The notes below the pieces were generated by a model that saw only the letters and a program-made list of their open reading frames with translations, was not told where the DNA came from and did no database searches. Position numbers and translations under genes: made by a program. Source: Kluyvera intermedia (GTDB taxonomy: Bacteria; Pseudomonadota; Gammaproteobacteria; Enterobacterales; Enterobacteriaceae). From it: a DNA stretch of 43,290 bases. Shown one piece after another: positions 4,009-38,096 of the stretch. Each line of letters starts with the position of its first letter. Position 1 is the stretch's first letter. Location of the stretch: the NCBI RefSeq assembly GCF_021440345.1, contig NZ_JAKCNS010000099.1, positions 1-43,290 of the forward strand, read 5' to 3'.

Positions 4009-5334
4009 ATGGAAACAATCTCAGTTGCACCGACACAAACCTCTAGCGCGGCGGCACGAGCGGGCATGTCGGAAAGTGAATGGCAAGCGGCAATAAAATT
4101 CGACAGTACCGATGTGGGCTGGGTCATCATGAGTATCGGCATGGCTATCGGTGCGGGGATTGTGTTTCTGCCCGTCCAGGTGGGATTAATGGGCCTGTGG
4201 GTGTTCCTGCTCTCTTCTATCGTCGGTTATCCGGCCATGTATTTGTTCCAGCGTCTGTTTATTAATACCCTGGCAGAATCACCGGAGTGTAAAGACTACC
4301 CGAGCGTGATCAGCGGCTACTTGGGTAAAAACTGGGGCATTTTACTGGGCGCGCTCTATTTCATCATGTTGGTGATTTGGATGTTCGTCTACTCCACTGC
4401 CATCACCAACGATAGCGCTTCCTACCTGCACACGTTCGGCGTCACCGACGGCCTGCTCTCCGAGAATCCATTCTATGGTTTGGGGCTTATCTGCGTGCTG
4501 GTGGCAATCTCTTCAAGGGGTGAAAAGCTGCTGTTTAAGGTCTCCAGCTTTATGGTGCTGACCAAGCTGCTGGTGGTCGCCGCGCTGGGCGCGTCGATGG
4601 TGGGGATGTGGCATCTGTATAACGCCGGCACGCTGCCGCCGATGGGGCTGCTGATTAAAAATGCCATCATCACGCTGCCGTTTACGCTGACCTCGATCCT
4701 GTTTATTCAGACCCTGAGCCCGATGGTTATCTCTTATCGTTCGAAGGAGAAGTCACGCGAAGTTGCCCGCCATAAGGCACTGCGTGCCATGAATATCGCC
4801 TTTGGCATTTTGTTTGTGGTGGTCTTCTTCTACGCCGTCTCATTCACCCTGGCGATGGGCCATGATGAAGCGGTCAAAGCCTATGAGCAGAATATCTCGG
4901 CGCTGGCGATTGCGGCACAGTTTATCAACGGGAGCGCAGGGGCATGGGTGACCGTGGTCAGCGTTATCCTCAATATCTTTGCGGTGATGACCGCTTTCTT
5001 CGGTGTTTATCTTGGCTTTCGCGAAGCGACTCAGGGGATTGTGATTAACCTGCTGCGCCGCAAAATGCCGGAAGAAAAAATCAACCAGAAGCTGGTGCAG
5101 CGCGGGATCATGTTGTTCGCCATCCTGCTGGCGTGGAGCGCGATTGTACTCAACGCGCCGGTGCTGAGCTTCACCTCTATCTGTAGTCCTATCTTTGGTA
5201 TGGTCGGCTGTCTTATCCCGGCCTGGCTGGTTTACAAAGTGCCGGCGTTACACAAATACAAAGGTGTCTCCCTGGTGATCATTATCATCACCGGTCTGCT
5301 GCTGTGCGTGTCTCCGTTCCTGGCATTCTCTTGA
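4009..5334 (+). CDS. dlsT: Serine/cysteine-type amino-acid symporter (HAAAP family) YhaO/CyuP
   Basis: Inner-membrane amino-acid permease of the hydroxy/aromatic amino acid permease family (SdaC/TdcC relatives), also called YhaO or CyuP. In E. coli it is linked to serine and cysteine uptake. The protein has 441 residues, with a ~35-residue hydrophilic N-terminus followed by about eleven hydrophobic segments. The first contains the glycine-rich MSIGMAIGAGIVFLPVQVG typical of the family. The start is the first ATG with a GAGTGAG-like Shine-Dalgarno upstream. Four bases separate its stop from the earliest possible start of the cysteine desulfidase gene, so the pair is an operon of transporter plus catabolic enzyme. 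Confidence 0.9.
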   Translation: METISVAPTQTSSAAARAGMSESEWQAAIKFDSTDVGWVIMSIGMAIGAGIVFLPVQVGLMGLWVFLLSSIVGYPAMYLFQRLFINTLAESPECKDYPSVISGYLGKNWGILLGALYFIMLVIWMFVYSTAITNDSASYLHTFGVTDGLLSENPFYGLGLICVLVAISSRGEKLLFKVSSFMVLTKLLVVAALGASMVGMWHLYNAGTLPPMGLLIKNAIITLPFTLTSILFIQTLSPMVISYRSKEKSREVARHKALRAMNIAFGILFVVVFFYAVSFTLAMGHDEAVKAYEQNISALAIAAQFINGSAGAWVTVVSVILNIFAVMTAFFGVYLGFREATQGIVINLLRRKMPEEKINQKLVQRGIMLFAILLAWSAIVLNAPVLSFTSICSPIFGMVGCLIPAWLVYKVPALHKYKGVSLVIIIITGLLLCVSPFLAFS

Positions 5335-27816: not shown

Positions 27817-28887
27817 TTAACGAAGCGTGACCCGCTTACCCAACGAATCAAACAGGTGGAGGTGGGCCTCTTGTACGCTCAAGCTGAGTGATTGCTGGTT
27901 TGGGAAGCTCAACTGCTGGAATGACTTCAGGCAGATTGATTCTCCGGCGGCCTCCAGCCAGACCAGCGTAGAGTCTCCCTGAAGTTCACACAGACGGGTG
28001 CGACCGGTGAGGGTAAAGTCACCGGGTTGCTGATACTGCATATGCTCCGGACGGATGGCGACAAACATTTTATCGCCTTCACGAATCCCTTCCGGCTGGC
28101 GAGAAAGCGGGAAGACGATGTCATCCGCAATCTGTAGCGCGCCCTGATACCAGACGGCAGGGAGAATATTGATTTTAGGCGTGCCGATAAACTTGGCAAC
28201 GAACAGGTTTGCCGGTGTGTTGTAGAGCTCAAGCGGCGTGCCGACCTGTTCAATTTTTCCTTTGTAGAGCACCACGATACGGTCGGCGAGCGTCATGGCT
28301 TCGACCTGGTCGTGGGTGACATAAATCATGGTGTTTTTCAGCGTGTTATGTAGCTGCTGGATCTCCTGACGCATCTCCACGCGTAGCGCGGCATCGAGGT
28401 TGGAAAGCGGCTCATCAAACAAGAACAGCTCTGGTTCCTGAACAATCGAACGGCCAATCGCCACGCGCTGTCGCTGGCCACCGGAGAGATTTTGCGGCAG
28501 CCTGTCGAGCATCTCATCCAGCTTTAGCATGGTGGCTGCACGATGGATTCGCCGCGCGATTTCATCAGCCGGGGTTTTGATATTCCGTAAGCCAAACGAG
28601 AGGTTATCGCGTACGGTCATATGCGGATAGAGGGCGTAGGACTGAAACACCATCGACAAGCTACGTTTGCCCGCTGCAAGGTGGGTGACGTCTTTATCAC
28701 CCATCATCAGTGTGCCGCTATCGGGCATCTCAAGCCCGGCAATCATTCGCAGCAGCGTCGACTTACCGCAGCCGGAAGGGCCGACCAGCACGATAAATTC
28801 ACCGGAAGCTATCTCCAGAGACAAATTTTCAATGATGGTGGTCTTGTCGTATTTTTTATGGATATTGCTCAGGTTAAGGGCTGTCAT
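27817..28887 (-). CDS. ABC sugar importer ATPase (MsmK/UgpC/MalK type)
   Basis: Cytoplasmic ATP-hydrolysing subunit of a carbohydrate uptake (CUT1) ABC importer, 356 residues. Walker A GPSGCGKST is at about residues 36-44, the Q-loop at FQSYALYPHMTVRDNL, the signature LSGGQRQRVAIGRS at 134-147, and Walker B LFLFDEP at 154-160. The switch histidine is in YVTHDQVEAMT. A C-terminal TOBE/OB regulatory domain follows residue ~240 (FVAIRPEHM). It presumably partners the two permeases and binding protein on the opposite strand. Its ATG overlaps the phosphomannomutase stop by four bases. It could also serve other importers, as MsmK does in streptococci. Confidence 0.93.
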   Translation of the reverse strand: MTALNLSNIHKKYDKTTIIENLSLEIASGEFIVLVGPSGCGKSTLLRMIAGLEMPDSGTLMMGDKDVTHLAAGKRSLSMVFQSYALYPHMTVRDNLSFGLRNIKTPADEIARRIHRAATMLKLDEMLDRLPQNLSGGQRQRVAIGRSIVQEPELFLFDEPLSNLDAALRVEMRQEIQQLHNTLKNTMIYVTHDQVEAMTLADRIVVLYKGKIEQVGTPLELYNTPANLFVAKFIGTPKINILPAVWYQGALQIADDIVFPLSRQPEGIREGDKMFVAIRPEHMQYQQPGDFTLTGRTRLCELQGDSTLVWLEAAGESICLKSFQQLSFPNQQSLSLSVQEAHLHLFDSLGKRVTLR

Positions 28888-30260
28888 AGCGCCTCCTTCG
28901 CGGCAATGAATGCCAGCACTTCGGCAGTTTTGGCGGAGAGCAGGCCGGTATCGCCGCGAGTTTCAACATTCAGACGCAGCAGCGGTTCGGTATTCGAGGC
29001 GCGCAAGTTAAAGCGCCAGTCGGCAAAGGCCAGGCTAACGCCATCGCAGTCGTCGTATTGTGGCGACTGGGGCTGATAGTACGCGGTAATGCTTTTGAGC
29101 ATGTCGGCAGGACTGTCGACAACCCGATTGATCTCTCCTGATACCGGAAACTGCGCCTGCGCCCCGGCGATAAAGTCAGACAATGGCTGATGGCTACCGC
29201 CAATAATTTGCAGCATCAGCACCAGCGGGATCATCCCGCTATCGCAGTAGCCAAATTCGCGAAAGTAGTGATGTCCGCTCATTTCGCCGCCGTAGATGGC
29301 ATCTTCCTGGCGCATCCGGGCTTTGATAAAGGCGTGTCCGGTTTTGCTGATAATCGGCTTCCCGCCGTTGTGGTTGATAACCTCGAGGGTATTCCAGATT
29401 AAGCGTGGATCGAGGATAACGCTGCTACCGGGCGAGTGCTGTAAAAAATGACGGGCAAACAGCCCCACCAGGTAATAGCTCTCGATAAATTCGCCGCGCT
29501 GATCGAAGAAAAAACAGCGATCGAAATCGCCATCCCAGGCGATACCAAAATCAGCATGATTATCAATAACCGCCTGCTGGGTGGCGAGCTGGTTTTCTGC
29601 CAGCATCGGATTGGGAACACCCGCCGGGAAACGGCCATCGGGTTGATGATGTAGACGGATAAATTCAACCGGCACGCCAGAGTGATTCAGTGCCTCAGCT
29701 AGCGCATCGAGCGCCGGGCCTGCTGTTCCATGCCCTGAGTTGGCGACAATCCGCAGCGGGCGTATCAACGGGTGCCTGAAGAAACGCAGCAGGCAGCGGA
29801 TCCATGCGGGACGGTTATCATAGGTGGTGAGGACGCCGCGATGCACAGCGGGCGGAAACGCGTTTTTCTCTGCCAGCGCTTTAATTTCAAGTAGCCCGTT
29901 GTCGTTGCTTACCGGGCGTGCTTCTTCGCGCACCAGTTTCATGCCATTGTCATGGGCGGGATTATGGCTGGCGGTGACTTGAATTCCACCGTCTGCGCGT
30001 AGCTCACGCGTGGCAAAGTAAATCTCTTCCGTGCCCGTGAGGCCAATATCAATCACATTAACGCCGCTGGACATCAGTCCTTCCGCGAGCGCGGCTTTTA
30101 ACGCCTCCGAGCTCAGACGAATATCCGCCCCGACCACAACGCGTCGGGGGTGTAACCAACTGGCGTAGGCGCGACCAATCCGATAGGCAATTCCGGGTGT
30201 GAGTTCGACATCGACTTCGCCACGAATGTCGTAGGCTTTAAAGCAGGTCAGTTCATCCAT
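28884..30260 (-). CDS. Phosphomannomutase (CpsG/ManB-like)
   Basis: Alpha-D-phosphohexomutase interconverting mannose-1-phosphate and mannose-6-phosphate. It has 458 residues and is clearly related to E. coli CpsG/ManB (456 residues; shared start LTCFKAYDIRG). The phosphoserine is Ser98 in VTASHNP. The Mg2+ loop is DGDFDR (243-248), the sugar-binding loop GGEMSGHHYF (323-332), and the phosphate-binding loop RASNTEP (419-425). It is not next to capsule or GDP-mannose genes but inside a catabolic operon with a GH130 phosphorylase. That suggests it routes mannose-1-phosphate into glycolysis rather than toward GDP-mannose. It starts 29 nt after the regulator gene and overlaps the ATPase gene. Confidence 0.92.
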   Translation of the reverse strand: MDELTCFKAYDIRGEVDVELTPGIAYRIGRAYASWLHPRRVVVGADIRLSSEALKAALAEGLMSSGVNVIDIGLTGTEEIYFATRELRADGGIQVTASHNPAHDNGMKLVREEARPVSNDNGLLEIKALAEKNAFPPAVHRGVLTTYDNRPAWIRCLLRFFRHPLIRPLRIVANSGHGTAGPALDALAEALNHSGVPVEFIRLHHQPDGRFPAGVPNPMLAENQLATQQAVIDNHADFGIAWDGDFDRCFFFDQRGEFIESYYLVGLFARHFLQHSPGSSVILDPRLIWNTLEVINHNGGKPIISKTGHAFIKARMRQEDAIYGGEMSGHHYFREFGYCDSGMIPLVLMLQIIGGSHQPLSDFIAGAQAQFPVSGEINRVVDSPADMLKSITAYYQPQSPQYDDCDGVSLAFADWRFNLRASNTEPLLRLNVETRGDTGLLSAKTAEVLAFIAAKEAL

Positions 30261-30289
30261 AATCCACTCTTCGGTTAAGCAATAGGTAC

Positions 30290-31366
30290 TCAGGCGGTTT
30301 CCCGCACGATGAGCTGATACTCCAGCGCATAGTGGGTGACTGGCCCGTTTTTCAGGAGTAACTCAACGGCGATTTTACCTTTGCGTTCTGCATCCTGGGC
30401 GATGGTCGTAAGCCCAATGCCCTTCACTTCGGGCGTCACGTTGTCAAAGCCGATGATCGCCACGCGTTGGGGAATGGGCAGGCCATTGCGCTGGCAGTAA
30501 TTGACTGCGCCAACCGCGAAACGATCCGACAGGCAGATAAGCGCGGTGATGGCGGGATGGGCCGTTAATAACGTCTCAGCGGCCAGTTCGCCATGCTGTT
30601 CATCGTGTTGAGTTTCATAGAGCCAGCTATCGCCCAGCGGTATTCCATGCTCATGAAATACGTCGCGGCAGGCATTTACGCGCGTCAGCATTAATGTGTT
30701 GTCGCCGGCGATAGCCTGCTTAAGATGATGCATCCCTTGGACGCCGGGGCTCGAGGAGAAGGCGATGATGCCAAAATGGCGATGCCCTTTCTGGAGCAGA
30801 TAGGTCGCGATATCGCGCATCGCACAGGTGTTATCTATGGATACGCTGCTGTATTGCGGCAGTTGAAAATCAAGCGTCACGACCGGGAGATGGCGCGCGA
30901 GCGTTTGCTGGATGACTTCGGCATTGTTGTAGGTGGCATTGAGAATGTAACCATCAACCAGCGTGGTGGGGGATGGCGATTTACACGAGGCCCCTTTTTG
31001 CAGCGGAATAAGCACCAGATTTATATTCTGTTCTTCGCAACGTATGGCAATCCCGCGCATCAGCTTGATGTCATGGGGATCGATAAATACGTAACTCATT
31101 GAGTCGTTAAAAACCACGCCGATGGCATCTGATTTTCCGGTACGTAACGCCCGAGCCAGTTTATCGGGTCCCTGAAAACCGACCGACTTTGCATAAGACA
31201 AAATACGCTCCCGTAAATCAGCAGAGAGTTTTTCAGGGTTATTCCACGCATTTGAAATCGTCGTGTGTGAAATACCCATTTCACTGGCCAATGATTTTAT
31301 TGTTATCCTGGTGTTTTTTATTTCTTTATATTCATCAGGTGTTTTATTTTCTTTTTTTATATTCAT
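30290..31366 (-). CDS. LacI-family transcriptional regulator
   Basis: LacI/GalR-type repressor of 358 residues. The helix-turn-helix and hinge lie at about residues 20-75 (ITIKSLASEMGISHTTISNA, then PDKLARALRTGKSDAIGVVF), preceded by an unusual ~19-residue charged extension. The sugar-binding-like core contains GHRHFGIIAFSSSPG and VAIIGFDNVTPE. No in-frame ATG exists between the given start and the DNA-binding domain, and no good Shine-Dalgarno is seen. The first ~30 codons are very AT-rich. It heads the leftward transcript and should control both arms through the palindromes at 31413-31460; the inducer is unknown. Confidence 0.93.
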   Translation of the reverse strand: MNIKKENKTPDEYKEIKNTRITIKSLASEMGISHTTISNAWNNPEKLSADLRERILSYAKSVGFQGPDKLARALRTGKSDAIGVVFNDSMSYVFIDPHDIKLMRGIAIRCEEQNINLVLIPLQKGASCKSPSPTTLVDGYILNATYNNAEVIQQTLARHLPVVTLDFQLPQYSSVSIDNTCAMRDIATYLLQKGHRHFGIIAFSSSPGVQGMHHLKQAIAGDNTLMLTRVNACRDVFHEHGIPLGDSWLYETQHDEQHGELAAETLLTAHPAITALICLSDRFAVGAVNYCQRNGLPIPQRVAIIGFDNVTPEVKGIGLTTIAQDAERKGKIAVELLLKNGPVTHYALEYQLIVRETA

Positions 31367-31412
31367 GGGGATTATATGTTTGCGTTTTTATTTATACGTT
31401 AATGGGCGCTAA

Positions 31413-31426
31413 GTTTAGCGTTAAAC
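31413..31426. promoter_or_regulatory. LacI-type operator O1 (imperfect)
   Basis: GTTTAGCGTTAAAC, differing by one base from the perfect O2 palindrome. A central CG is typical of LacI-family operators. It is centred 33 bp from O2, about three helical turns. Confidence 0.75.
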
Positions 31427-31445
31427 AAAAATTGTTTTGTGATTT

Positions 31446-31459
31446 GTTTAACGTTAAAC
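31446..31459. promoter_or_regulatory. LacI-type operator O2 (perfect palindrome)
   Basis: GTTTAACGTTAAAC is a perfect 14-bp palindrome (16 bp with flanking T and A) with the central CG expected of LacI/GalR-family sites. It lies on the binding-protein side of O1. Confidence 0.8.
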
Positions 31460-31545
31460 ATAAAAAAGGAGTGCTAGTTTACGCCTCATTCAAAGCAGGG
31501 TTGCGGTAAGCCAATAATACGTATTACGCGTTAGGGAGATAAATC

Positions 31546-32835
31546 GTGAAATATTCAACGGTTGCTAAATTGACGGCATCAATACTACTCAGTTTCTGTA
31601 TTTCCGGTTGTGGCCCGGATGATAAAAGCGAGGCGCAAGATAGCGCTAAAACACCGATTAAAATGTGGGTCGCGCCGAATGAAAATGAAGAGGCGTTCTG
31701 GAATAAAATGGTGACGGAATGGAATAAAGACGCCACGCATACACCCGTTGAATTTACAACTATTCCTGCGGCTAATAGCTCGGAAGAAGCCATCATGAAT
31801 GCGTTGGCCTCAGGAACTGAACCGGATATTTCCAGTAATATATTTATTGGTTTTGCCAGTCAGCTTGTTGATGTCGGGCAAATTGAAGATTTATCTAAAA
31901 TGCCTGGATTTGAGGCACTGGTGAATTCGCGTCAAATGACGGCGATCCTTCCCGCCTGGAAACTCAACGGCCAGCAAAATGTCCTGCCGATTTATATCAA
32001 TCCTATTGTCTGGTGGTGGCGCGGTGATTTGCTGAAAAAATACGGTTTTGACCATGTTCCGACACGTTACGACGAACTTTACCAATTGGCTGAGCGCCGG
32101 GCGGCAGATAACCACGGCTACGTAATGCAGCTGACGGCGGGCAAAAACTGGTGGGAGCGCTGGTTTGACTTTATCCCGTTGTATTACGCACAGAGCGGTG
32201 GCAAAGCCTATATCGCGGATAAAAAAGCTGAATTCAATAACCCTGCGGGTCAGGCCGTGCTGACATTTATGGGGAAAGTGTTTGAAAACAAGTGGAGCAG
32301 CTATGACTTCACCGCCGCTGACGACCCGCTGGCAACCGGGCTAGTACTGGCCTCGGCACGTGGCCCCTGGGATCTCGCACGCTACCGTAAACAGTACCCG
32401 GACATACTGAAAACCATTCAGATAGGCCCAATGCTAACCGAAGGTGGCGTCGCGCATCCGCATACGTTTGGTGACAGCAAAGGCATGGTGATGTTCAGCT
32501 CCAGCAAACACAAAACGCAAGCCTGGGCATTCATACAATGGGTTTTTGGCCATGCAGAGCATGACCGTAGCTGGCTGGAACTTACCGGTATGCCGCCAGC
32601 GCGCGCCGATCTGATGACTAACCCGCTGTTTACTCAGTATTTTGACCAGAACCCGCTGGAGAAAAGCATTGCGTCCTATGTTGATGTCGCGCTGCCGCCG
32701 GTGGCGACGACGCAAACCACGGAAGTGCAGCGTAGTATGACGCAGATGCTTGAACGGGTGATTTTTAACCAGGATGACCCGACCAAAGTATTAGCCCAGT
32801 CCCAGCAAGAAATTAACGCCCTATTATCCAAATAA
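31546..32835 (+). CDS. Lipoprotein extracellular sugar-binding protein (ABC importer)
   Basis: Family 1 solute-binding protein of 429 residues that delivers a carbohydrate to the permeases. The start is a GTG with AGGGAG seven bases upstream. The N-terminus MKYSTVAKLTASILLSFC leads to a lipobox ISGC with the lipidated cysteine at residue 22, followed by Gly-Pro-Asp-Asp. The mature domain shows the CUT1 pattern (KMWVAPNENEEAFWNKMVTE; LASGTEPDISSNIF; WAFIQWVFGHAEHDRSWLEL). Aromatic residues such as NPIVWWWRGDLLKKYGFDHV suit oligosaccharide binding. Lipid anchoring is normal for Gram-positive binding proteins but unusual for an enterobacterial one. First gene of the rightward arm, nine bases before the first permease. 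Confidence 0.92.
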   Translation: MKYSTVAKLTASILLSFCISGCGPDDKSEAQDSAKTPIKMWVAPNENEEAFWNKMVTEWNKDATHTPVEFTTIPAANSSEEAIMNALASGTEPDISSNIFIGFASQLVDVGQIEDLSKMPGFEALVNSRQMTAILPAWKLNGQQNVLPIYINPIVWWWRGDLLKKYGFDHVPTRYDELYQLAERRAADNHGYVMQLTAGKNWWERWFDFIPLYYAQSGGKAYIADKKAEFNNPAGQAVLTFMGKVFENKWSSYDFTAADDPLATGLVLASARGPWDLARYRKQYPDILKTIQIGPMLTEGGVAHPHTFGDSKGMVMFSSSKHKTQAWAFIQWVFGHAEHDRSWLELTGMPPARADLMTNPLFTQYFDQNPLEKSIASYVDVALPPVATTQTTEVQRSMTQMLERVIFNQDDPTKVLAQSQQEINALLSK

Positions 32836-32844
32836 GGGGGATCA

Positions 32845-33711
32845 ATGGCCGGATATGATTCCCGTACCGGAGGCCTGCTGGCCTCCGTATGGATAGGTTA
32901 TTCTTTGCTGTTCTGGTTTTACCCACTGGCCTGGCTGCTGGTGCTTAGCGTGACACACTGGCAATTTATTGGTACGCCCCGTTTTACGGGGCTACAGAAT
33001 ATTATTGGCGTGGTTAACGACCAGCTATTCTGGACATCAATGTGGAATATCTGTCGGTTCCTGATGTGGTATTTACCCATCGTCTTTATCACCTCGTTAC
33101 TCTTTGCCGCCGGTCTGCGTAAAATTAAATATGGGAAGGGGTTTATTGCACTGAGTTTTTTGCTGGCTAATATATCATCGGGCGTGGCCTATTCCATTGT
33201 GTTTGCCAAACTCTTTAGTGAATATGGCCCAGTGAATCAGTTTTTACGTGAAGCTTTTAATGTTTCTGTTCCCTGGTTTACCAACCCGGACTGCGCAATG
33301 CTATCGATCGCCCTGATTGTAACCTGGAAATTTGTCGGCTATTACGGTCTGATTCTTTATTCCGGGATGCAATCTATTCCGCACGATATTTATAGTGCGG
33401 CAGTGCTGGATAAAACGGGGCGCCTTAAACAAAGCTGGGCCATTACCTTGCCTATGATGAATCCGCAAATTGTCATGGTGATGGTGCTGGTGATTACCGT
33501 CGCTTTCAGTATTTTCACCGAACCTTATTTAATTACCGGCGGTGGGCCGTTGAACAGTACAACTAGTCCAATGGTGGTGATGTATGAAGCCGCTTTCCAG
33601 AATATGAAACCGACCTGGGCCGCTGCAATGTCAATCATTGTGGCTGGGTGTAGCTTCCTGGCTATCTGGCTCTTCCGCAAACTGTTTGAAAAAAATATCG
33701 AGATTGTGTGA
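32845..33711 (+). CDS. ABC sugar importer permease 1 (MalF/UgpA type)
   Basis: Inner-membrane subunit of a CUT1 importer, 288 residues with about six transmembrane helices. The EAA loop that contacts the ATPase is at about residues 183-205 (YSAAVLDKTGRLKQSWAITL). The segment TEPYLITGGGPLNSTTSPMV is typical of MalF-type permeases. AGGGGG lies before the ATG. Its stop codon directly abuts the start of the second permease. Confidence 0.93.
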   Translation: MAGYDSRTGGLLASVWIGYSLLFWFYPLAWLLVLSVTHWQFIGTPRFTGLQNIIGVVNDQLFWTSMWNICRFLMWYLPIVFITSLLFAAGLRKIKYGKGFIALSFLLANISSGVAYSIVFAKLFSEYGPVNQFLREAFNVSVPWFTNPDCAMLSIALIVTWKFVGYYGLILYSGMQSIPHDIYSAAVLDKTGRLKQSWAITLPMMNPQIVMVMVLVITVAFSIFTEPYLITGGGPLNSTTSPMVVMYEAAFQNMKPTWAAAMSIIVAGCSFLAIWLFRKLFEKNIEIV

Positions 33712-34539
33712 ATGAAAAAACTCACTCCCTTGAGCCTGTTAATTCATGCGGTGATGTTTTTACTGGCGTTAAGCTGGCTCTACCCGTTTATCTGGATGGT
33801 TGTCTCCTCACTGAAGCCAACGGCGGAAATCTACACCAGCAGCCTGTTCTCCGGGCATTTAACGCTGGAAAACTACACCTTCCTTTTTGATAACAGCAAC
33901 CGTGCAGATAAGCCGTTTTTGCGCACGTTGTGTAATTCGCTGTTTGTGTCCATCACCATCACCGCCTGTGTGACCGTCACCTCGATGCTGGTGGGATACG
34001 CGCTGGCGAAGACCGAATTTCACGGTAAAAACGCGTTTCGCAATTTACTGATTGTGCAGATGGTGTTCCCGGTATTCATGTTCATCATTCCGCAGTTTGT
34101 GCTGATGCGGGAGCTGGGGCTGATTAATGACTACAGCGCGATGATCCTGCCCTATGCGATGAGCGCGTGGGGGATCTTTATGGTGTCGCAGAGCTTCAAA
34201 GGGACGCCGAATGATTACCTGTACGCCGCGCGTCTCGATCACGCCAATCTGTGGGGCATTTTGCGTCATGTGATGATGCCGCTGAATAAATCCATTCTGG
34301 CGATTGTTGCGCTATTCACCTTCTCAAGCTCCTGGGACAACTTCCTGTGGCCGCTGATTGTGATGCGAGATGTCGAAAAAATGCCGTTCTCAGTCCTGTT
34401 AGCGACGTTCAGTAAATCTTACGGCGTGTATCTGGGGCCGGTAATGGCTGGGGCAGTGGTGCAGATGCTGCCTGTCGTCGTGCTATTTATCCTGTTCCGT
34501 AAATATTTCCTGCAGGGTATGTCGTTATCACTGAAATAA
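33712..34539 (+). CDS. ABC sugar importer permease 2 (MalG/UgpE type)
   Basis: Second transmembrane subunit, 275 residues with about six helices. The EAA loop is at about residues 170-191 (YAARLDHANLWGILRHVMMP). The N-terminal LSWLYPFIWMVVSSLKP and the segment TFSSSWDNFLWPLIVM are characteristic of MalG-type permeases. Translation starts immediately after the first permease's stop, implying coupled synthesis of an equimolar heterodimer. It precedes the GH13 gene by 11 nt. Confidence 0.93.
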   Translation: MKKLTPLSLLIHAVMFLLALSWLYPFIWMVVSSLKPTAEIYTSSLFSGHLTLENYTFLFDNSNRADKPFLRTLCNSLFVSITITACVTVTSMLVGYALAKTEFHGKNAFRNLLIVQMVFPVFMFIIPQFVLMRELGLINDYSAMILPYAMSAWGIFMVSQSFKGTPNDYLYAARLDHANLWGILRHVMMPLNKSILAIVALFTFSSSWDNFLWPLIVMRDVEKMPFSVLLATFSKSYGVYLGPVMAGAVVQMLPVVVLFILFRKYFLQGMSLSLK

Positions 34540-34550
34540 GGAACGTACCG

Positions 34551-36137
34551 GTGAGCAATCAACCCTGGTGGCAGGCGTGTACCTGCTATCAAATTTATCT
34601 GCCCTCTTTTTGCGACGGAAACGGCGACGGCATCGGGGATTTCACCGGGCTGTTGTCGAAGGTCGATTATCTGCAAACGCTGGGCGTCGGGGCTATCTGG
34701 ATAACCCCTTTTTACCCGTCACCGATGGTGGATAACGGTTACGACATCAGTGACTACTGCACCGTTGATCCACGTTTTGGTACATCGGCGGATTTTCGTG
34801 AAGTGGTGGAACGCTGCCACGCCTGCGGGATCCGGGTGATCATCGATCTGGTGGTTAACCACGTTTCGACGGAACATCCCTGGTTTCGCGATGCATGGAA
34901 TAATCCGGCCAGCCGCTACCGGGATTACTTTCTGTTTAGCAAACAGCCAAATAACTGGCAGTCGTTTTTCTCCGGCAGTGCATGGTGTGCGGAGCCGGAT
35001 ACCGGCGAGTATTACTACCATAAATTTTCGCCACAGCAGGTTGATTTGAACTGGCAGAATCCGCAGGTGGAGCAGGAGATCTATCGGGTCATCGATTTCT
35101 GGAAATCGCAGGGGGTTGATGGTTTTCGTTTTGATGTGATCAACTTTTTGACCACTGACGGCATAGGTCCTGATAACCCGATAGACAACGGTGAACAGCG
35201 GCATGAGTTTGATATAAACCAACCGGGGATCATCGACACCTTACGGCGCCTGTGTCGCTATGTGCGTCAGCAGGGGAACGCGTTTCTGATTGCCGAGATC
35301 GGCAGCGACGAGCTGGATATTCTGGCGCGCTATCAGAGTCCCGAACTGATGGACGTGGTGTTCAACTTCAATATCGGCAGCCAGAAGACCTTCGATATCT
35401 CGCGTTTATGCTCGGAAATTAACGCCACACAATCACAGCAATCAGGCCTGCCAACGCTCTTTTTCTCCAGCCACGATATGCCGCGCATGATTAGCCGTTT
35501 TGGTGAAGGCCTACGCGATATTGAACGCGCGCGAGCGGTGCTAGCGCTGCAGCTGACCGTGCGCGGCGTGCCGTTTGTCTTCCAGGGCGAAGAGCTGGGG
35601 ATGACCGACTATCTCCCCGAGACGGTAGAACAGATTTTCGATATTCAGGGGAAAATCCATTATCAAACGGCGCTCCAGCAAGGCTTAACGCAGGCCGAAG
35701 CGCTGGTTCAGGCAATTGACCATTCACGCGATGCATCCCGTGCGCCGATGCTGTGGAGCGATGCGCCATTAGCTGGATTCTCTCCCATCACATCCTGGAT
35801 GCCCATTAGCAACGACTACCGGCAAATCAACGCCATGCGCCAGCAGCAGACGCCCGGCTCGCTGTGGCGAGATTATCAGGAGCTGATTGCGCTGCGCAGA
35901 CAAACGGCAGCTCTCTGCGAGGGGGATGGCGGACTGCTGGTGCAGACCGAGGAGTGCGTCTGGTTTATGCGCGCGACGGCAAGCGAACGAATCTGGGTGG
36001 CGATTAATTTTGGCGGTCCGGTACAAAATCCATGGCGGGCGATTGCCGCCGACGTGCTGTACGGGCAGGACACCCAATGGCTAGGTAAAAATCAAATTCT
36101 GATGAAAAGGAGAGTTCATGAACAGACACAGCAATAA
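34551..36137 (+). CDS. GH13 alpha-glucosidase-type glycoside hydrolase
   Basis: Cytoplasmic GH13 enzyme of 528 residues, starting at GTG with AAGGA nine bases upstream. No signal peptide is present. The calcium loop DGNGDGIGD is at residues 22-30. Region I is DLVVNH (99-104), and the nucleophile is Asp195 in GFRFDVINF. The acid/base is Glu249 in LIAEIGSDE and the third acid Asp309 in FFSSHDMPR. Overall it resembles oligo-1,6-glucosidase, dextran glucosidase and trehalose-6-phosphate hydrolase. Val196 directly after the nucleophile is the residue found in oligo-1,6-glucosidases, where alpha-1,4 enzymes usually have Thr. Specificity is not resolved. Its last 20 bases overlap the GH130 gene. Confidence 0.9.
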   Translation: MSNQPWWQACTCYQIYLPSFCDGNGDGIGDFTGLLSKVDYLQTLGVGAIWITPFYPSPMVDNGYDISDYCTVDPRFGTSADFREVVERCHACGIRVIIDLVVNHVSTEHPWFRDAWNNPASRYRDYFLFSKQPNNWQSFFSGSAWCAEPDTGEYYYHKFSPQQVDLNWQNPQVEQEIYRVIDFWKSQGVDGFRFDVINFLTTDGIGPDNPIDNGEQRHEFDINQPGIIDTLRRLCRYVRQQGNAFLIAEIGSDELDILARYQSPELMDVVFNFNIGSQKTFDISRLCSEINATQSQQSGLPTLFFSSHDMPRMISRFGEGLRDIERARAVLALQLTVRGVPFVFQGEELGMTDYLPETVEQIFDIQGKIHYQTALQQGLTQAEALVQAIDHSRDASRAPMLWSDAPLAGFSPITSWMPISNDYRQINAMRQQQTPGSLWRDYQELIALRRQTAALCEGDGGLLVQTEECVWFMRATASERIWVAINFGGPVQNPWRAIAADVLYGQDTQWLGKNQILMKRRVHEQTQQ

Positions 36138-37176
36138 TCCGCTGATTACCCCGAAAGATGTGGTGCCTTCACTGCCGGGGCGGAAAGTAGAATGCGTTTT
36201 TAATACCGGCGTCACCGAATACAACGGTGAAATTATCCTGCTCCTGCGCGTTGCCGAGAGCGTGCTTAATGACGATCCGCAGCAGATCGTCGTGCCGCTG
36301 CTGGAATCACACGCGGGTGGCTGGCGGCAGACCACGAAGATGTTCCACCGCGGCGATGAGCGCTACGATTTTAGCGATCCCCGAACCATTGTCTTAAAGA
36401 GCGATCCATCGCAGCTGTGGCTGACCTCAATGTCCCATTTGCGCCTTGCGCGCAGCAAAGATGGCGTGCATTACGCGATCGATACCCAGCCTTTTATCAT
36501 CGCGGACAGCCGCTATGAAGAGTTCGGTTGCGAGGATGCGCGTATTACGCAGATAGATGATCTTTGGTATATCAACTACTCGGCGGTTTCGTCATTGGGG
36601 ATCACCACGGCGCTGGCGACCACCCGCGACTTTGTGCACGTTGAAAAACAGGGATTGATCCTTTGTCCGGATAACCGCGACGTCTGTTTCTTCCCGGAAA
36701 AAGTTAACGGTCGCTATATGGCGTTAACGCGCCCGGCACCGTGCCACTTTGGTCATCCAGAGATCTGGATCTGCGAATCTCCGGATATGCTGCACTGGGG
36801 AAACCACCGGCACCTGCTGGGACGTTCAGGGGATGAATGGGACTCGCGGAAATCAGGTGGCGGCGCGCCGTTAATTAAAACCCAACGTGGCTGGCTTGAG
36901 ATCTATCACGGAGTCGATGCCGATCAACGCTACTGTCTGGGCGCGCTGTTATTGGATCTCAACGATCCCACCAAAATCCTCGCAAAATCGCCGGTACCGC
37001 TGCTGGAGCCAACGGCATCCTATGAACGAGAAGGTTTTTTCGGCAACGTCGTGTTCACCTGCGGGGCGCTTATTCGTGATGAGGTGCTGCATGTCTGGTA
37101 CGGCGCCGCCGATGAGTGTACCGCGCTGGCGACGCTGCCAATGGATGCGTTATGGAAGCACTTAGGGTTGGCATGA
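36118..37176 (+). CDS. GH130 beta-mannoside phosphorylase (predicted)
   Basis: Five-bladed beta-propeller enzyme of the GH130 family, 352 residues, cytoplasmic. Family members phosphorolyse beta-1,4- or beta-1,2-mannosidic bonds to alpha-mannose-1-phosphate; a few are hydrolases. The likely proton-donor aspartate is Asp140 in FGCEDARI. Other family motifs are LLRVAE (42-47), FSDPRT (85-90), FFPEKVNGRY (191-200), YHGV with His264, and YGAADECTALA near the C-terminus. A strong AAGGAGA Shine-Dalgarno lies inside the end of the GH13 gene. The mannose-1-phosphate product would feed the cluster's phosphomannomutase, which supports phosphorolysis over hydrolysis. The linkage and acceptor sugar are unknown. 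Confidence 0.88.
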   Translation: MNRHSNNPLITPKDVVPSLPGRKVECVFNTGVTEYNGEIILLLRVAESVLNDDPQQIVVPLLESHAGGWRQTTKMFHRGDERYDFSDPRTIVLKSDPSQLWLTSMSHLRLARSKDGVHYAIDTQPFIIADSRYEEFGCEDARITQIDDLWYINYSAVSSLGITTALATTRDFVHVEKQGLILCPDNRDVCFFPEKVNGRYMALTRPAPCHFGHPEIWICESPDMLHWGNHRHLLGRSGDEWDSRKSGGGAPLIKTQRGWLEIYHGVDADQRYCLGALLLDLNDPTKILAKSPVPLLEPTASYEREGFFGNVVFTCGALIRDEVLHVWYGAADECTALATLPMDALWKHLGLA

Positions 37177-38096
37177 TGCGCGACGACGTGGCCGAACTTT
37201 ATCGCCGCTATCGCTCCCACACCCGGCTACACAGCGGTGGCAAAATTACTTTTCACGGCGTGGACGGGCGGGATGTGTATAACCCGACGGCACCTTTTCG
37301 TCATGCTGGGGGATGGTGCATAGCCGCGCGGGTGGAAGTGCGCAACAGCGAACGCGCTCAGGTGTGCTTCTTCGCCTGGGACGGCGCGAATCATGCAACT
37401 GTGCTAGCCGATATGCCGAAGTTCGATTTGCAGGACCCCTTTATCAGCGAGATCGATGGGCAACTGGTGTTTGGCGGCGTAGAGGTCTCGTTTTCAACGC
37501 AAGGGGAGCCTTTACGCTGGCGCACGCAGTTTTTCATCGGGGAAAATATTGCCACATTGCGGCCGCTGGCGACCGGGCCGTGGGGCATGAAAGATATCCG
37601 CCTGCTTCAATTGCCCGATGGACGTATTCTGGTTTTTACCCGGCCACAAGGGGAGCCTGGCGGGCGTGGCACCATCGGCTGGACGATTATCCCCCGATTG
37701 CAGGCGCTCGATGCGCAGGTGATGGCCCGCGCCACGTTGATTTCACATGTGGATGAGCAGTGCTGGTGCGGCGTCAATGCGGCATACCTGCTGCCTACGG
37801 GCAACGTTGGCGTGCTGGCGCATGTTGCTGGTTTTGATGCGTTGGGCAACCGTCATTACTATGCGGCGCGTTTTCTCTTTGACCCTCAGTCCGGCGTGTC
37901 GTCTCCGATGGCAATCATCGCCTGCCGGGATGATTTTCTGAGTGGGGAGAGCAAGCGTGAGGATTTGCGGGATGTCGTTTTCCCCGCCGGGTTGCTAAAA
38001 GATGGTCAAGGCGGCGTCCGGCTTTTTTGCGGCACCAGCGATTGCGAAGTTCAGTGGCTGGATATCCCATCGCCATTTGGCGATAGGTGGCAATAA
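37173..38096 (+). CDS. DUF1861 family protein, possible sugar-active beta-propeller
   Basis: Protein of 307 residues of the DUF1861 family, for which I know no established activity. The start at 37173 (ATGATG overlapping the GH130 stop) was chosen over an upstream ATG because AGGG lies six bases before it and the N-terminus then matches the family. Conserved blocks are RDVYNPTAPF (33-42), FDLQDPF (84-90), VFGGVEV (99-105), GPWGMKDIR (135-143), FTRPQGEPGGRG (155-166), GNRHYYAARF (225-234) and REDLRDVVFPAG (262-273). The repeated DPF, KDIR and GGVE blocks resemble the blade motifs of GH43/GH68/GH130-type propellers. No signal peptide, so cytoplasmic. Coupling to GH130 suggests a partner enzyme for the same substrate. 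Confidence 0.8.
   Translation: MMRDDVAELYRRYRSHTRLHSGGKITFHGVDGRDVYNPTAPFRHAGGWCIAARVEVRNSERAQVCFFAWDGANHATVLADMPKFDLQDPFISEIDGQLVFGGVEVSFSTQGEPLRWRTQFFIGENIATLRPLATGPWGMKDIRLLQLPDGRILVFTRPQGEPGGRGTIGWTIIPRLQALDAQVMARATLISHVDEQCWCGVNAAYLLPTGNVGVLAHVAGFDALGNRHYYAARFLFDPQSGVSSPMAIIACRDDFLSGESKREDLRDVVFPAGLLKDGQGGVRLFCGTSDCEVQWLDIPSPFGDRWQ

What the first reader, a model, noticed from the sequence alone, without database searches (positions are those of the whole stretch)
27817..38096. Nine-gene divergent cluster predicted to import and phosphorolyse a mannose-containing glycoside
Seen: LacI regulator, CpsG-type phosphomannomutase and ABC ATPase on one strand; lipoprotein binding protein, two permeases, GH13, GH130-type and DUF1861 genes on the other, inserted between fadH and patA where E. 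coli has unrelated genes. Known: GH130 phosphorylases yield alpha-mannose-1-phosphate; phosphomannomutase converts it to mannose-6-phosphate. Inference: a complete cytoplasmic route in which GH13 trims an alpha-glucosyl part, GH130 splits a beta-mannosyl bond without spending ATP, and the mutase feeds glycolysis through ManA. I know of no described enterobacterial pathway with this gene set. No porin, secreted hydrolase or PTS gene is present, so the substrate should be small and soluble.
Basis: partly seen in the sequence, partly recalled or inferred. Interest (0 to 1): 0.85.

Follow-up and report, generated by a model that had tools for sequence, protein, structure and literature searches.

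The report
Beta-1,2-mannoside import and phosphorolysis cluster
A nine-gene cassette in a gut-type bacterium probably imports small mannose-containing sugars linked beta-1,2 and splits them with phosphate instead of ATP, using two enzymes, one of which belongs to the family that makes and breaks the mannogen reserve of Leishmania.

Summary
The nine genes are present and intact at the stated coordinates. The cassette is a clean unit: six sister Kluyvera genomes have fadH next to patA, and all or most of it recurs in 21 Enterobacterales loci (14 with DUF1861). Three things change the picture. First, the GH130 is of the beta-1,2 class: its best solved relative is Lin0857, beta-1,2-mannobiose phosphorylase of Listeria innocua. 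Second, DUF1861 is not an unknown: its best solved relatives are the Leishmania mannogen mannosyltransferase/phosphorylases (CAZy GT108), active-site Asp included. Two beta-1,2-mannoside phosphorylase-type enzymes probably divide chain lengths. Third, Listeria monocytogenes has the same operon, so the gene set is not peculiar to enterobacteria. Palindromes GTTTARCGTTAAAC between the divergent arms, conserved in 20 of 20 Enterobacterales loci examined, are the likely shared LacI operators. What the GH13 removes remains open, and Sphingomonas versions lack it. Novelty: new variant of a known kind.

The parts
27817..28887 (-). MalK/UgpC-type ABC ATPase
   Evidence: Pfam ABC_tran + TOBE_2; NCBIfam UgpC subfamily 445.8 bits, cut-off 432
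28884..30260 (-). Phosphomannomutase/phosphoglucomutase, paralog of CpsG
   Evidence: PGM_PMM I-IV; 590.8 bits to the CpsG model, cut-off 801; separate true CpsG in the genome
30290..31366 (-). LacI-family regulator
   Evidence: Peripla_BP_3 2.8e-20; LacI HTH 21.9 bits, under its cut-off of 27
31413..31426 (.). Operator-like palindrome 1, GTTTAGCGTTAAAC (one imperfect pair)
31446..31459 (.). Operator-like palindrome 2, GTTTAACGTTAAAC (perfect)
   Evidence: exact matches in the genome only at these two places
31546..32835 (+). Lipoprotein solute-binding protein (GTG start, lipobox Cys22), Lmo0859-like
   Evidence: SBP_bac_1; best PDB match Lmo0859 4gqo 6e-62, next 6.9e-12; N-terminus
32845..33711 (+). 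ABC permease A
   Evidence: BPD_transp_1
33712..34539 (+). ABC permease B
   Evidence: BPD_transp_1
34551..36137 (+). GH13 alpha-glucosidase-type enzyme (Asp195, Glu249, Asp309)
   Evidence: Alpha-amylase 396 bits; closest PDB chains are GH13 enzymes, oligo-1,6-glucosidases and the like; the three residues in 23 of 23 aligned rows; that they are the catalytic triad is recalled
36118..37176 (+). GH130 of beta-1,2-mannobiose phosphorylase type (Glu139-Asp140)
   Evidence: best PDB Lin0857 369 bits; NCBIfam BtaManbiosPhlase 453 bits, under its cut-off of 550; E139 and D140 in 44 of 44 rows
37173..38096 (+). DUF1861 = GT108-type mannosyltransferase/phosphorylase
   Evidence: Pfam DUF1861 316 bits; best PDB MPT-4 2.4e-42, also MPT-1, MPT-2; Asp equivalent to the mutated D94 of MPT-2 invariant in 26 of 26 rows

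Best explanation
It is a catabolic cassette for small beta-1,2-linked mannosides. The lipoprotein binding protein and ABC importer bring in an oligosaccharide. In the cytoplasm the GH13 enzyme removes an alpha-glucosyl group where one is present (inferred). The GT108-type protein (DUF1861) and the GH130 then split beta-1,2-mannosyl bonds with phosphate, probably with longer chains handled by one and the disaccharide by the other (inferred). The alpha-mannose-1-phosphate formed goes through the cassette's own mutase to mannose-6-phosphate, and ManA takes it to glycolysis. A LacI-type repressor holds both arms through two palindromes between them. Shown here: gene content, families, active-site residues, conserved order, operator-like sites, presence of ManA and of a second CpsG. 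Inferred: every activity, the direction of reaction, the substrate, repressor binding.
For: GH130 nearest in the PDB to Lin0857, listed as beta-1,2-mannobiose phosphorylase in PMC8950772 (passages); 453 bits to a mannobiose phosphorylase model against 71 for a beta-1,2-mannosidase model. Glu in place of Tyr marks the GH130_NC cluster, which holds the Thermoanaerobacter beta-1,2 phosphorylases (PMC4264767 passages). DUF1861 matches Leishmania MPT structures, Asp conserved; four Leishmania GT108 enzymes are listed as beta-1,2-mannan phosphorylases with alpha-Man1P. SBP matches Lmo0859 far better than the next chain, and Listeria has the same operon with a mutase. All 9 Enterobacteriaceae genomes with DUF1861, of 295 searched, also have this GH130. 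No manC among the nine genes. Operator-like sites in 20 of 20 Enterobacterales loci examined. GT108 omega 0.09-0.20 among four Kluyvera.
Against: No activity is measured for any of these proteins. The GH130 is 47-49% identical to three Bacillota relatives and falls under the NCBIfam cut-off, so acceptor specificity may differ. GH130_NC also holds mannosidases. I have no described glycan that joins alpha-glucose to beta-1,2-mannose. GT108 is missing in 7 of 21 Enterobacterales loci, so the route can do without it. lmo0864, by gene order the Listeria GH130, was repressed by the product Biomos (PMC5750592, one passage; that Biomos is a yeast mannan product is recalled). No operator match in Listeria. 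The sigma-70 scan found no excess of promoters. The GT108 fold could not be predicted.
Confidence: 0.72

Rival explanations
1. The substrate is a small mannosyl-glucoside: GH130 takes off beta-mannose and GH13 then hydrolyses the remaining alpha-glucoside; GT108 is accessory. This overlaps with the best explanation, so the odds do not add to one.
For: GH13 is present in 20 of 20 Enterobacterales loci with sequence upstream, while GT108 is missing in 7 of 21; Teth514_1789 accepts fructose as well as mannose (PMC4264767 passage), so the class can have acceptors other than mannose.
Against: Best relatives are beta-1,2-mannobiose and beta-1,2-mannan enzymes; Sphingomonas-type loci keep GH130 and GT108 without GH13.
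Confidence: 0.2
2. Synthetic direction: GT108 and GH130 build a beta-1,2-mannan reserve or surface glycan from mannose-1-phosphate or GDP-mannose, as Leishmania MTPs do.
For: GT108 enzymes are dual transferase-phosphorylases (PMC8950772 passages); GH130 phosphorolysis is reversible (PMC4264767 passages).
Against: An ABC importer with binding protein, a LacI regulator and a glucosidase-type enzyme point to uptake and breakdown; no GDP-mannose pyrophosphorylase among the nine genes.
Confidence: 0.07
3. An alpha-glucoside (maltose or isomaltose type) uptake cluster in which the mannose enzymes are secondary.
For: GH13 resembles oligo-1,6-glucosidases and phosphotrehalases; the Listeria counterpart lmo0858-0865 was once suggested to be the maltose system (PMC2860498 passage).
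Against: The same passage reports that maltose uptake goes through other genes; GH130, GT108 and a sugar mutase lie beside the GH13 in Enterobacterales and Listeria alike.
Confidence: 0.05
4. GH130 is a hydrolase (beta-1,2-mannosidase), so the ATP saving is absent.
For: GH130_NC also holds beta-1,2-mannosidases (PMC8950772 passage), and most members with the Glu were suspected hydrolases (PMC4264767 passage).
Against: 71 bits to the BT3780 mannosidase model against 453 to the phosphorylase model; a mutase in the cassette would have no evident purpose.
Confidence: 0.05

Closest known systems
Listeria operon, by gene order lmo0858-lmo0865 (its GH130 is the counterpart of Lin0857, beta-1,2-mannobiose phosphorylase)
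   Same: LacI divergent from SBP, two permeases, GH13, DUF1861, GH130, then a phospho-sugar mutase; its SBP is Lmo0859; GH130 47%, DUF1861 40%, GH13 44% identical to the window
   Different: GH130 and DUF1861 in the other order; a longer mutase (557 residues) at the operon end; no ABC ATPase in the operon; operator motif not found
Thermoanaerobacter Teth514_1788/1789 cluster (PMC4264767, passages)
   Different: Both are GH130, not GT108; has a GH5 and a mannose-1-phosphate guanylyltransferase and is read as GDP-mannose supply
Leishmania MTP/MPT enzymes, CAZy GT108
   Same: DUF1861 sequence family and the Asp at the place of MPT-2 D94
   Different: Those turn over mannogen in a protozoon; here the gene sits beside an importer in a bacterial cassette and its activity is unknown
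Sphingomonas GH130-GT108 cassette (L055 and 11 loci)
   Same: ATPase, LacI, SBP, two permeases, GH130, GT108 and a similar operator in the 2 loci examined
   Different: No GH13, no mutase match; in L055 an extra protein similar to PDB 7tem and a TonB receptor nearby

Membership tests
GH130 beta-1,2-mannoside phosphorylase (GH130_NC) | Closest by sequence to characterised beta-1,2 phosphorylases | tested here: met
   Lin0857 1.5e-109, best of 18 PDB sequences
GH130 beta-1,2-mannoside phosphorylase (GH130_NC) | Glu instead of Tyr next to the catalytic Asp | tested here: met
   E139-D140 in 44 of 44 rows, 2 of 46 dropped as under 280 residues; rule from PMC4264767. The mark covers mannosidases too; that the column is that of Tyr103 of UhgbMP and that the next Asp is catalytic is recalled
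GH130 beta-1,2-mannoside phosphorylase (GH130_NC) | NCBIfam equivalog cut-off (NF050092, 550 bits) | tested here: not met
   453 bits; related to, but not inside, the named equivalog
GH130 beta-1,2-mannoside phosphorylase (GH130_NC) | Phosphate-dependent release of alpha-Man1P | not testable with these tools
   needs an enzyme assay
GT108 | Sequence homology to the Leishmania MTPs | tested here: met
   MPT-4 2.4e-42, MPT-1 2.5e-33, MPT-2 7.3e-33
GT108 | Active-site Asp (D94 of MPT-2) | tested here: met
   aligned to the D94N entry 6q4z; Asp invariant in 26 of 26 rows, 3 of 29 matches dropped by the script and read as intact; its role is inferred from the existence of the mutant entry, not from the paper
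GT108 | Five-bladed beta-propeller | tested here: inconclusive
   structure job never ran; profile match to GH130 weak, Prob 8.5, E 0.0039, with the two Asp in register
GT108 | Mannosyl transfer or phosphorolysis on beta-1,2-mannan | not testable with these tools
   needs an enzyme assay
Phosphomannomutase CpsG | NCBIfam CpsG subfamily cut-off 801 bits | tested here: not met
   590.8 bits; filed as a CpsG paralog only
TreC phosphotrehalase | NCBIfam equivalog cut-off 799.05 bits | tested here: not met
   433.3 bits

The most novel reading that the evidence does not exclude
DUF1861 is a whole bacterial branch of GT108 that works as a catabolic beta-1,2-oligomannan phosphorylase in tandem with GH130, in a cassette shared by Bacillota, Sphingomonas and Enterobacterales; its GH13 partner points to an undescribed natural glycan in which alpha-glucose caps or joins beta-1,2-mannose, and Leishmania's mannogen enzymes would derive from such a bacterial sugar-eating enzyme.
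Probability: 0.3. Interest if true: 0.72.

Novelty: new variant of a known kind. Interest (0 to 1): 0.5.

Why it matters
If right, it gives DUF1861 a function in bacteria, links the enzyme family of a Leishmania reserve polymer to bacterial nutrient cassettes, and gives some Enterobacterales a route to use beta-1,2-mannosides (reported from Candida mannan and some O-antigens, PMC4264767 passage) without spending ATP to phosphorylate the released mannose. A handful of purified proteins would settle it.

Tried and rejected
Alpha-glucoside (maltose) cluster: not favoured, because GH130, GT108 and a mutase lie beside the GH13 in Enterobacterales and Listeria and the Listeria counterpart was reported not to be the maltose route. 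TreC: under cut-off. Regulon elsewhere: one search listed seven other places within one mismatch of the operator. I read the surroundings of three: those on C162 and C1 lie inside ORFs; the one on C118 lies 31 bases past the end of one ORF and inside the longest reading of the next, whose true start is unclear, so a second site there is not excluded. The other four were not read. Sigma-70 scan: 5 sites against 9.6 in shuffles, so no promoter is claimed. GT108 divergence as decay: rejected, since omega is 0.09-0.20 and the frames read are open; dS values are high (0.65-2.9), so the omegas are rough. The stop reported inside GT108 of G289 is most likely the stop of the GH130 read upstream; the frame is open in L017, a contig of the same length. 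GH130/GT108 homology by profiles: weak. GT108 fold: not obtained.
Full report
WHAT IS THERE. Nine ORFs fill 27817-38096 as described and carry the families named. The three leftward genes are ATPase, mutase and LacI regulator; the six rightward ones are binding protein, two permeases, GH13, GH130 and DUF1861. GH13 and GH130 overlap (34551-36137 and 36118-37176), and DUF1861 most likely starts at 37173, where ATG overlaps the GH130 stop. G+C runs from 0.466 to 0.584 in the genes against 0.541 for the window, so composition alone does not mark the cassette as foreign.

HOST AND SITE. The window lies in a 4.75-Mb genome. Three same-genus genomes with the gene have contigs whose lengths equal those of named Kluyvera records, so the host is most likely a Kluyvera. 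DUF1861 is in 4 of 10 genomes of the genus, the window's own included and one of the ten only 52% complete. In the 6 of 6 without it, the matched ends of fadH and patA lie 146-206 bases apart. E. coli K-12 holds ygjH, ebgRAC and ygjIJK there. Among 5,426 E. coli genomes no place covers 80% of the GH13-GH130-DUF1861 stretch; the 20 matches listed, of 5,339, were treC. In Citrobacter L015 the cassette and further genes, among them a 1042-residue protein and a second LacI protein resembling the ebg set by size and order (families not searched), both lie between fadH and patA; L016 has the same spacing and a second LacI match. In an Enterobacter hormaechei record labelled a 606-kb plasmid the eight genes other than DUF1861 sit between metE and a dienelactone hydrolase gene next to udp, so the unit occurs at more than one site.

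NEIGHBOURHOODS. Of 41 loci found with the GH130, 21 are Enterobacterales (L006-L026; L017 is labelled Chryseobacterium but groups with a Citrobacter). By tblastn: GH13 in 20 of 20 with sequence upstream; mutase in 19 of 20 (missing in L024, a fragment at the contig end in L025); GT108 in 14 of 21 (missing in L013-L016, L021, L023, L025). In 11 Sphingomonas-type loci (L027-L036, L038; L035 is labelled Bacillus), GT108 is in 10 of 11 (L034 ends inside GH130), GH13 and mutase in none. In the other 9 loci no GT108 match was found, but L037 and L040 are short fragments. In 295 Enterobacteriaceae genomes, DUF1861 is in 9 and the GH130 in 14, one of these a weak match of 19 bits; all 9 are among the 14. 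DUF1861 is thus always with this GH130 in that sample, but not the reverse.

LISTERIA. A tblastn of DUF1861 against the plasmid collection gave 5 records, two of them Listeria. The annotated one shows LacI divergent from SBP, permease, permease, alpha-amylase family protein, DUF1861, GH130, phospho-sugar mutase. Its SBP is Lmo0859, which by gene order makes this lmo0858-lmo0865. Metabacillus has the same six rightward genes up to GH130, with manA further on. The window's binding protein matches Lmo0859 (4gqo) at 6e-62, the next chain at 6.9e-12. The operons are thus homologous, while the mutase, its place and the GH130-DUF1861 order differ.

THE TWO MANNOSIDE ENZYMES. GH130: best solved relative Lin0857 (369 bits), then the mannoside synthase Uhgb_MS (289 bits). 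NCBIfam gives 453 bits to a mannobiose phosphorylase model (cut-off 550, not reached), 216 to another (cut-off 450), 71 to a beta-1,2-mannosidase model. PMC4264767 (passages) says that GH130_NC has Glu where the other subfamilies have Tyr, that many of its members were suspected hydrolases, and that two Thermoanaerobacter members phosphorolyse beta-1,2-oligomannan. The window has Glu139-Asp140, in 44 of 44 rows. DUF1861: best solved relatives are Leishmania MPT-4, the conserved hypothetical protein 2b4w, MPT-1 and MPT-2. PMC8950772 (passages) lists four Leishmania GT108 enzymes as beta-1,2-mannan phosphorylases giving alpha-Man1P. The Asp altered in the MPT-2 D94N entry aligns to an Asp of the window protein that is invariant in 26 of 26 rows. 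The original GT108 and Lin0857 papers are not held.

PATHWAY. The genome has its own CpsG (1000 bits) besides this mutase (590 bits) and one ManA, so the step to fructose-6-phosphate is available. No GDP-mannose pyrophosphorylase is among the nine genes. GH13 keeps Asp195, Glu249 and Asp309 in 23 of 23 rows and is of the oligo-1,6-glucosidase/phosphotrehalase kind; Val after the nucleophile is, from memory, a mark of alpha-1,6 preference.

REGULATION. Two palindromes, GTTTAGCGTTAAAC at 31413 and GTTTAACGTTAAAC at 31446, lie between lacI and the SBP gene. The window holds four strand matches within two mismatches against 0.29 expected, none of 100 shuffles reaching four; these four are the two sites read on both strands. 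In the whole genome, exact matches occur only here; seven other places have one mismatch, and the control pattern read backwards gave 4 matches against 13. Of 20 Enterobacterales loci examined (of 21), 20 have at least one site within one mismatch and 14 have two, 33 bases apart; the 2 Sphingomonas loci examined (of 11) have one each, with one and two mismatches; Listeria has none; Metabacillus has a different palindrome. One repressor for both arms is therefore likely; repressor binding is not shown.

EVOLUTION. GH130 and GT108 trees each put Enterobacterales, Sphingomonas and the three Bacillota rows on separate branches; the Bacillota branch of GT108 is only 87/85. GT108 changes faster than its neighbours (omega 0.09-0.20; GH13 0.08-0.11, GH130 0.03-0.065, SBP 0.03-0.055; four Kluyvera, rough because dS is high) yet stays under purifying selection.

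LITERATURE. Searches for DUF1861, GH130 with mutase and glucosidase terms, Listeria locus tags, GT108 (which listed 5 of 3,003 hits), mannobiose phosphorylase terms and GH130 with genus names in the held open-access library listed no paper whose title or shown start of abstract describes this cassette in Enterobacterales or a characterised bacterial GT108. Papers were seen as listings and passages only. Subscription papers are outside that library. From memory, the GT108 paper proposed that Leishmania acquired the gene from Gram-positive bacteria; I could not check it.

VERDICT. A real, conserved cassette with a likely common regulator. The alpha-glucose part is the open question.

Noticed in passing
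L055:7414-8682, with an ORF at the same place in L036 (5685-6965): Protein of about 422 residues between LacI and SBP in Sphingomonas; only PDB match 7tem (putative exported protein YPO2471), 2.9e-76; a Pfam GH127 hint under its cut-off. Could be a periplasmic glycosidase of that version.
   Followed up: partly
window 31546-32835: The binding protein looks like a lipoprotein (lipobox Cys22) in a Gram-negative; a Gly-Cys is kept in the relatives printed. Unusual for an enterobacterial sugar importer (recalled) and fitting a Gram-positive-like ancestry.
   Followed up: partly
window 37173-38096: GT108 differs by about 30% between Kluyvera species whose neighbouring GH130 differs by 7-10%, an uneven rate within one operon.
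   Followed up: partly
L024:2759-5172: Rahnella sp. AA keeps the cassette but shows no mutase between ATPase and LacI.
   Followed up: no
L054:12154-18846: Metabacillus continues after GH130 with a GH2, an alcohol dehydrogenase, an MFS transporter, a ROK protein and manA, which may bear on the substrate.
   Followed up: no
G000:C118:6863-6876 (L081): One-mismatch copy of the operator palindrome, near an ORF boundary, on the contig that also carries the true CpsG about 8 kb away; possibly chance.
   Followed up: partly
window 4009-5334: 441-residue ORF between two serine dehydratase-type ORFs with no Pfam match at 1e-5.
   Followed up: no
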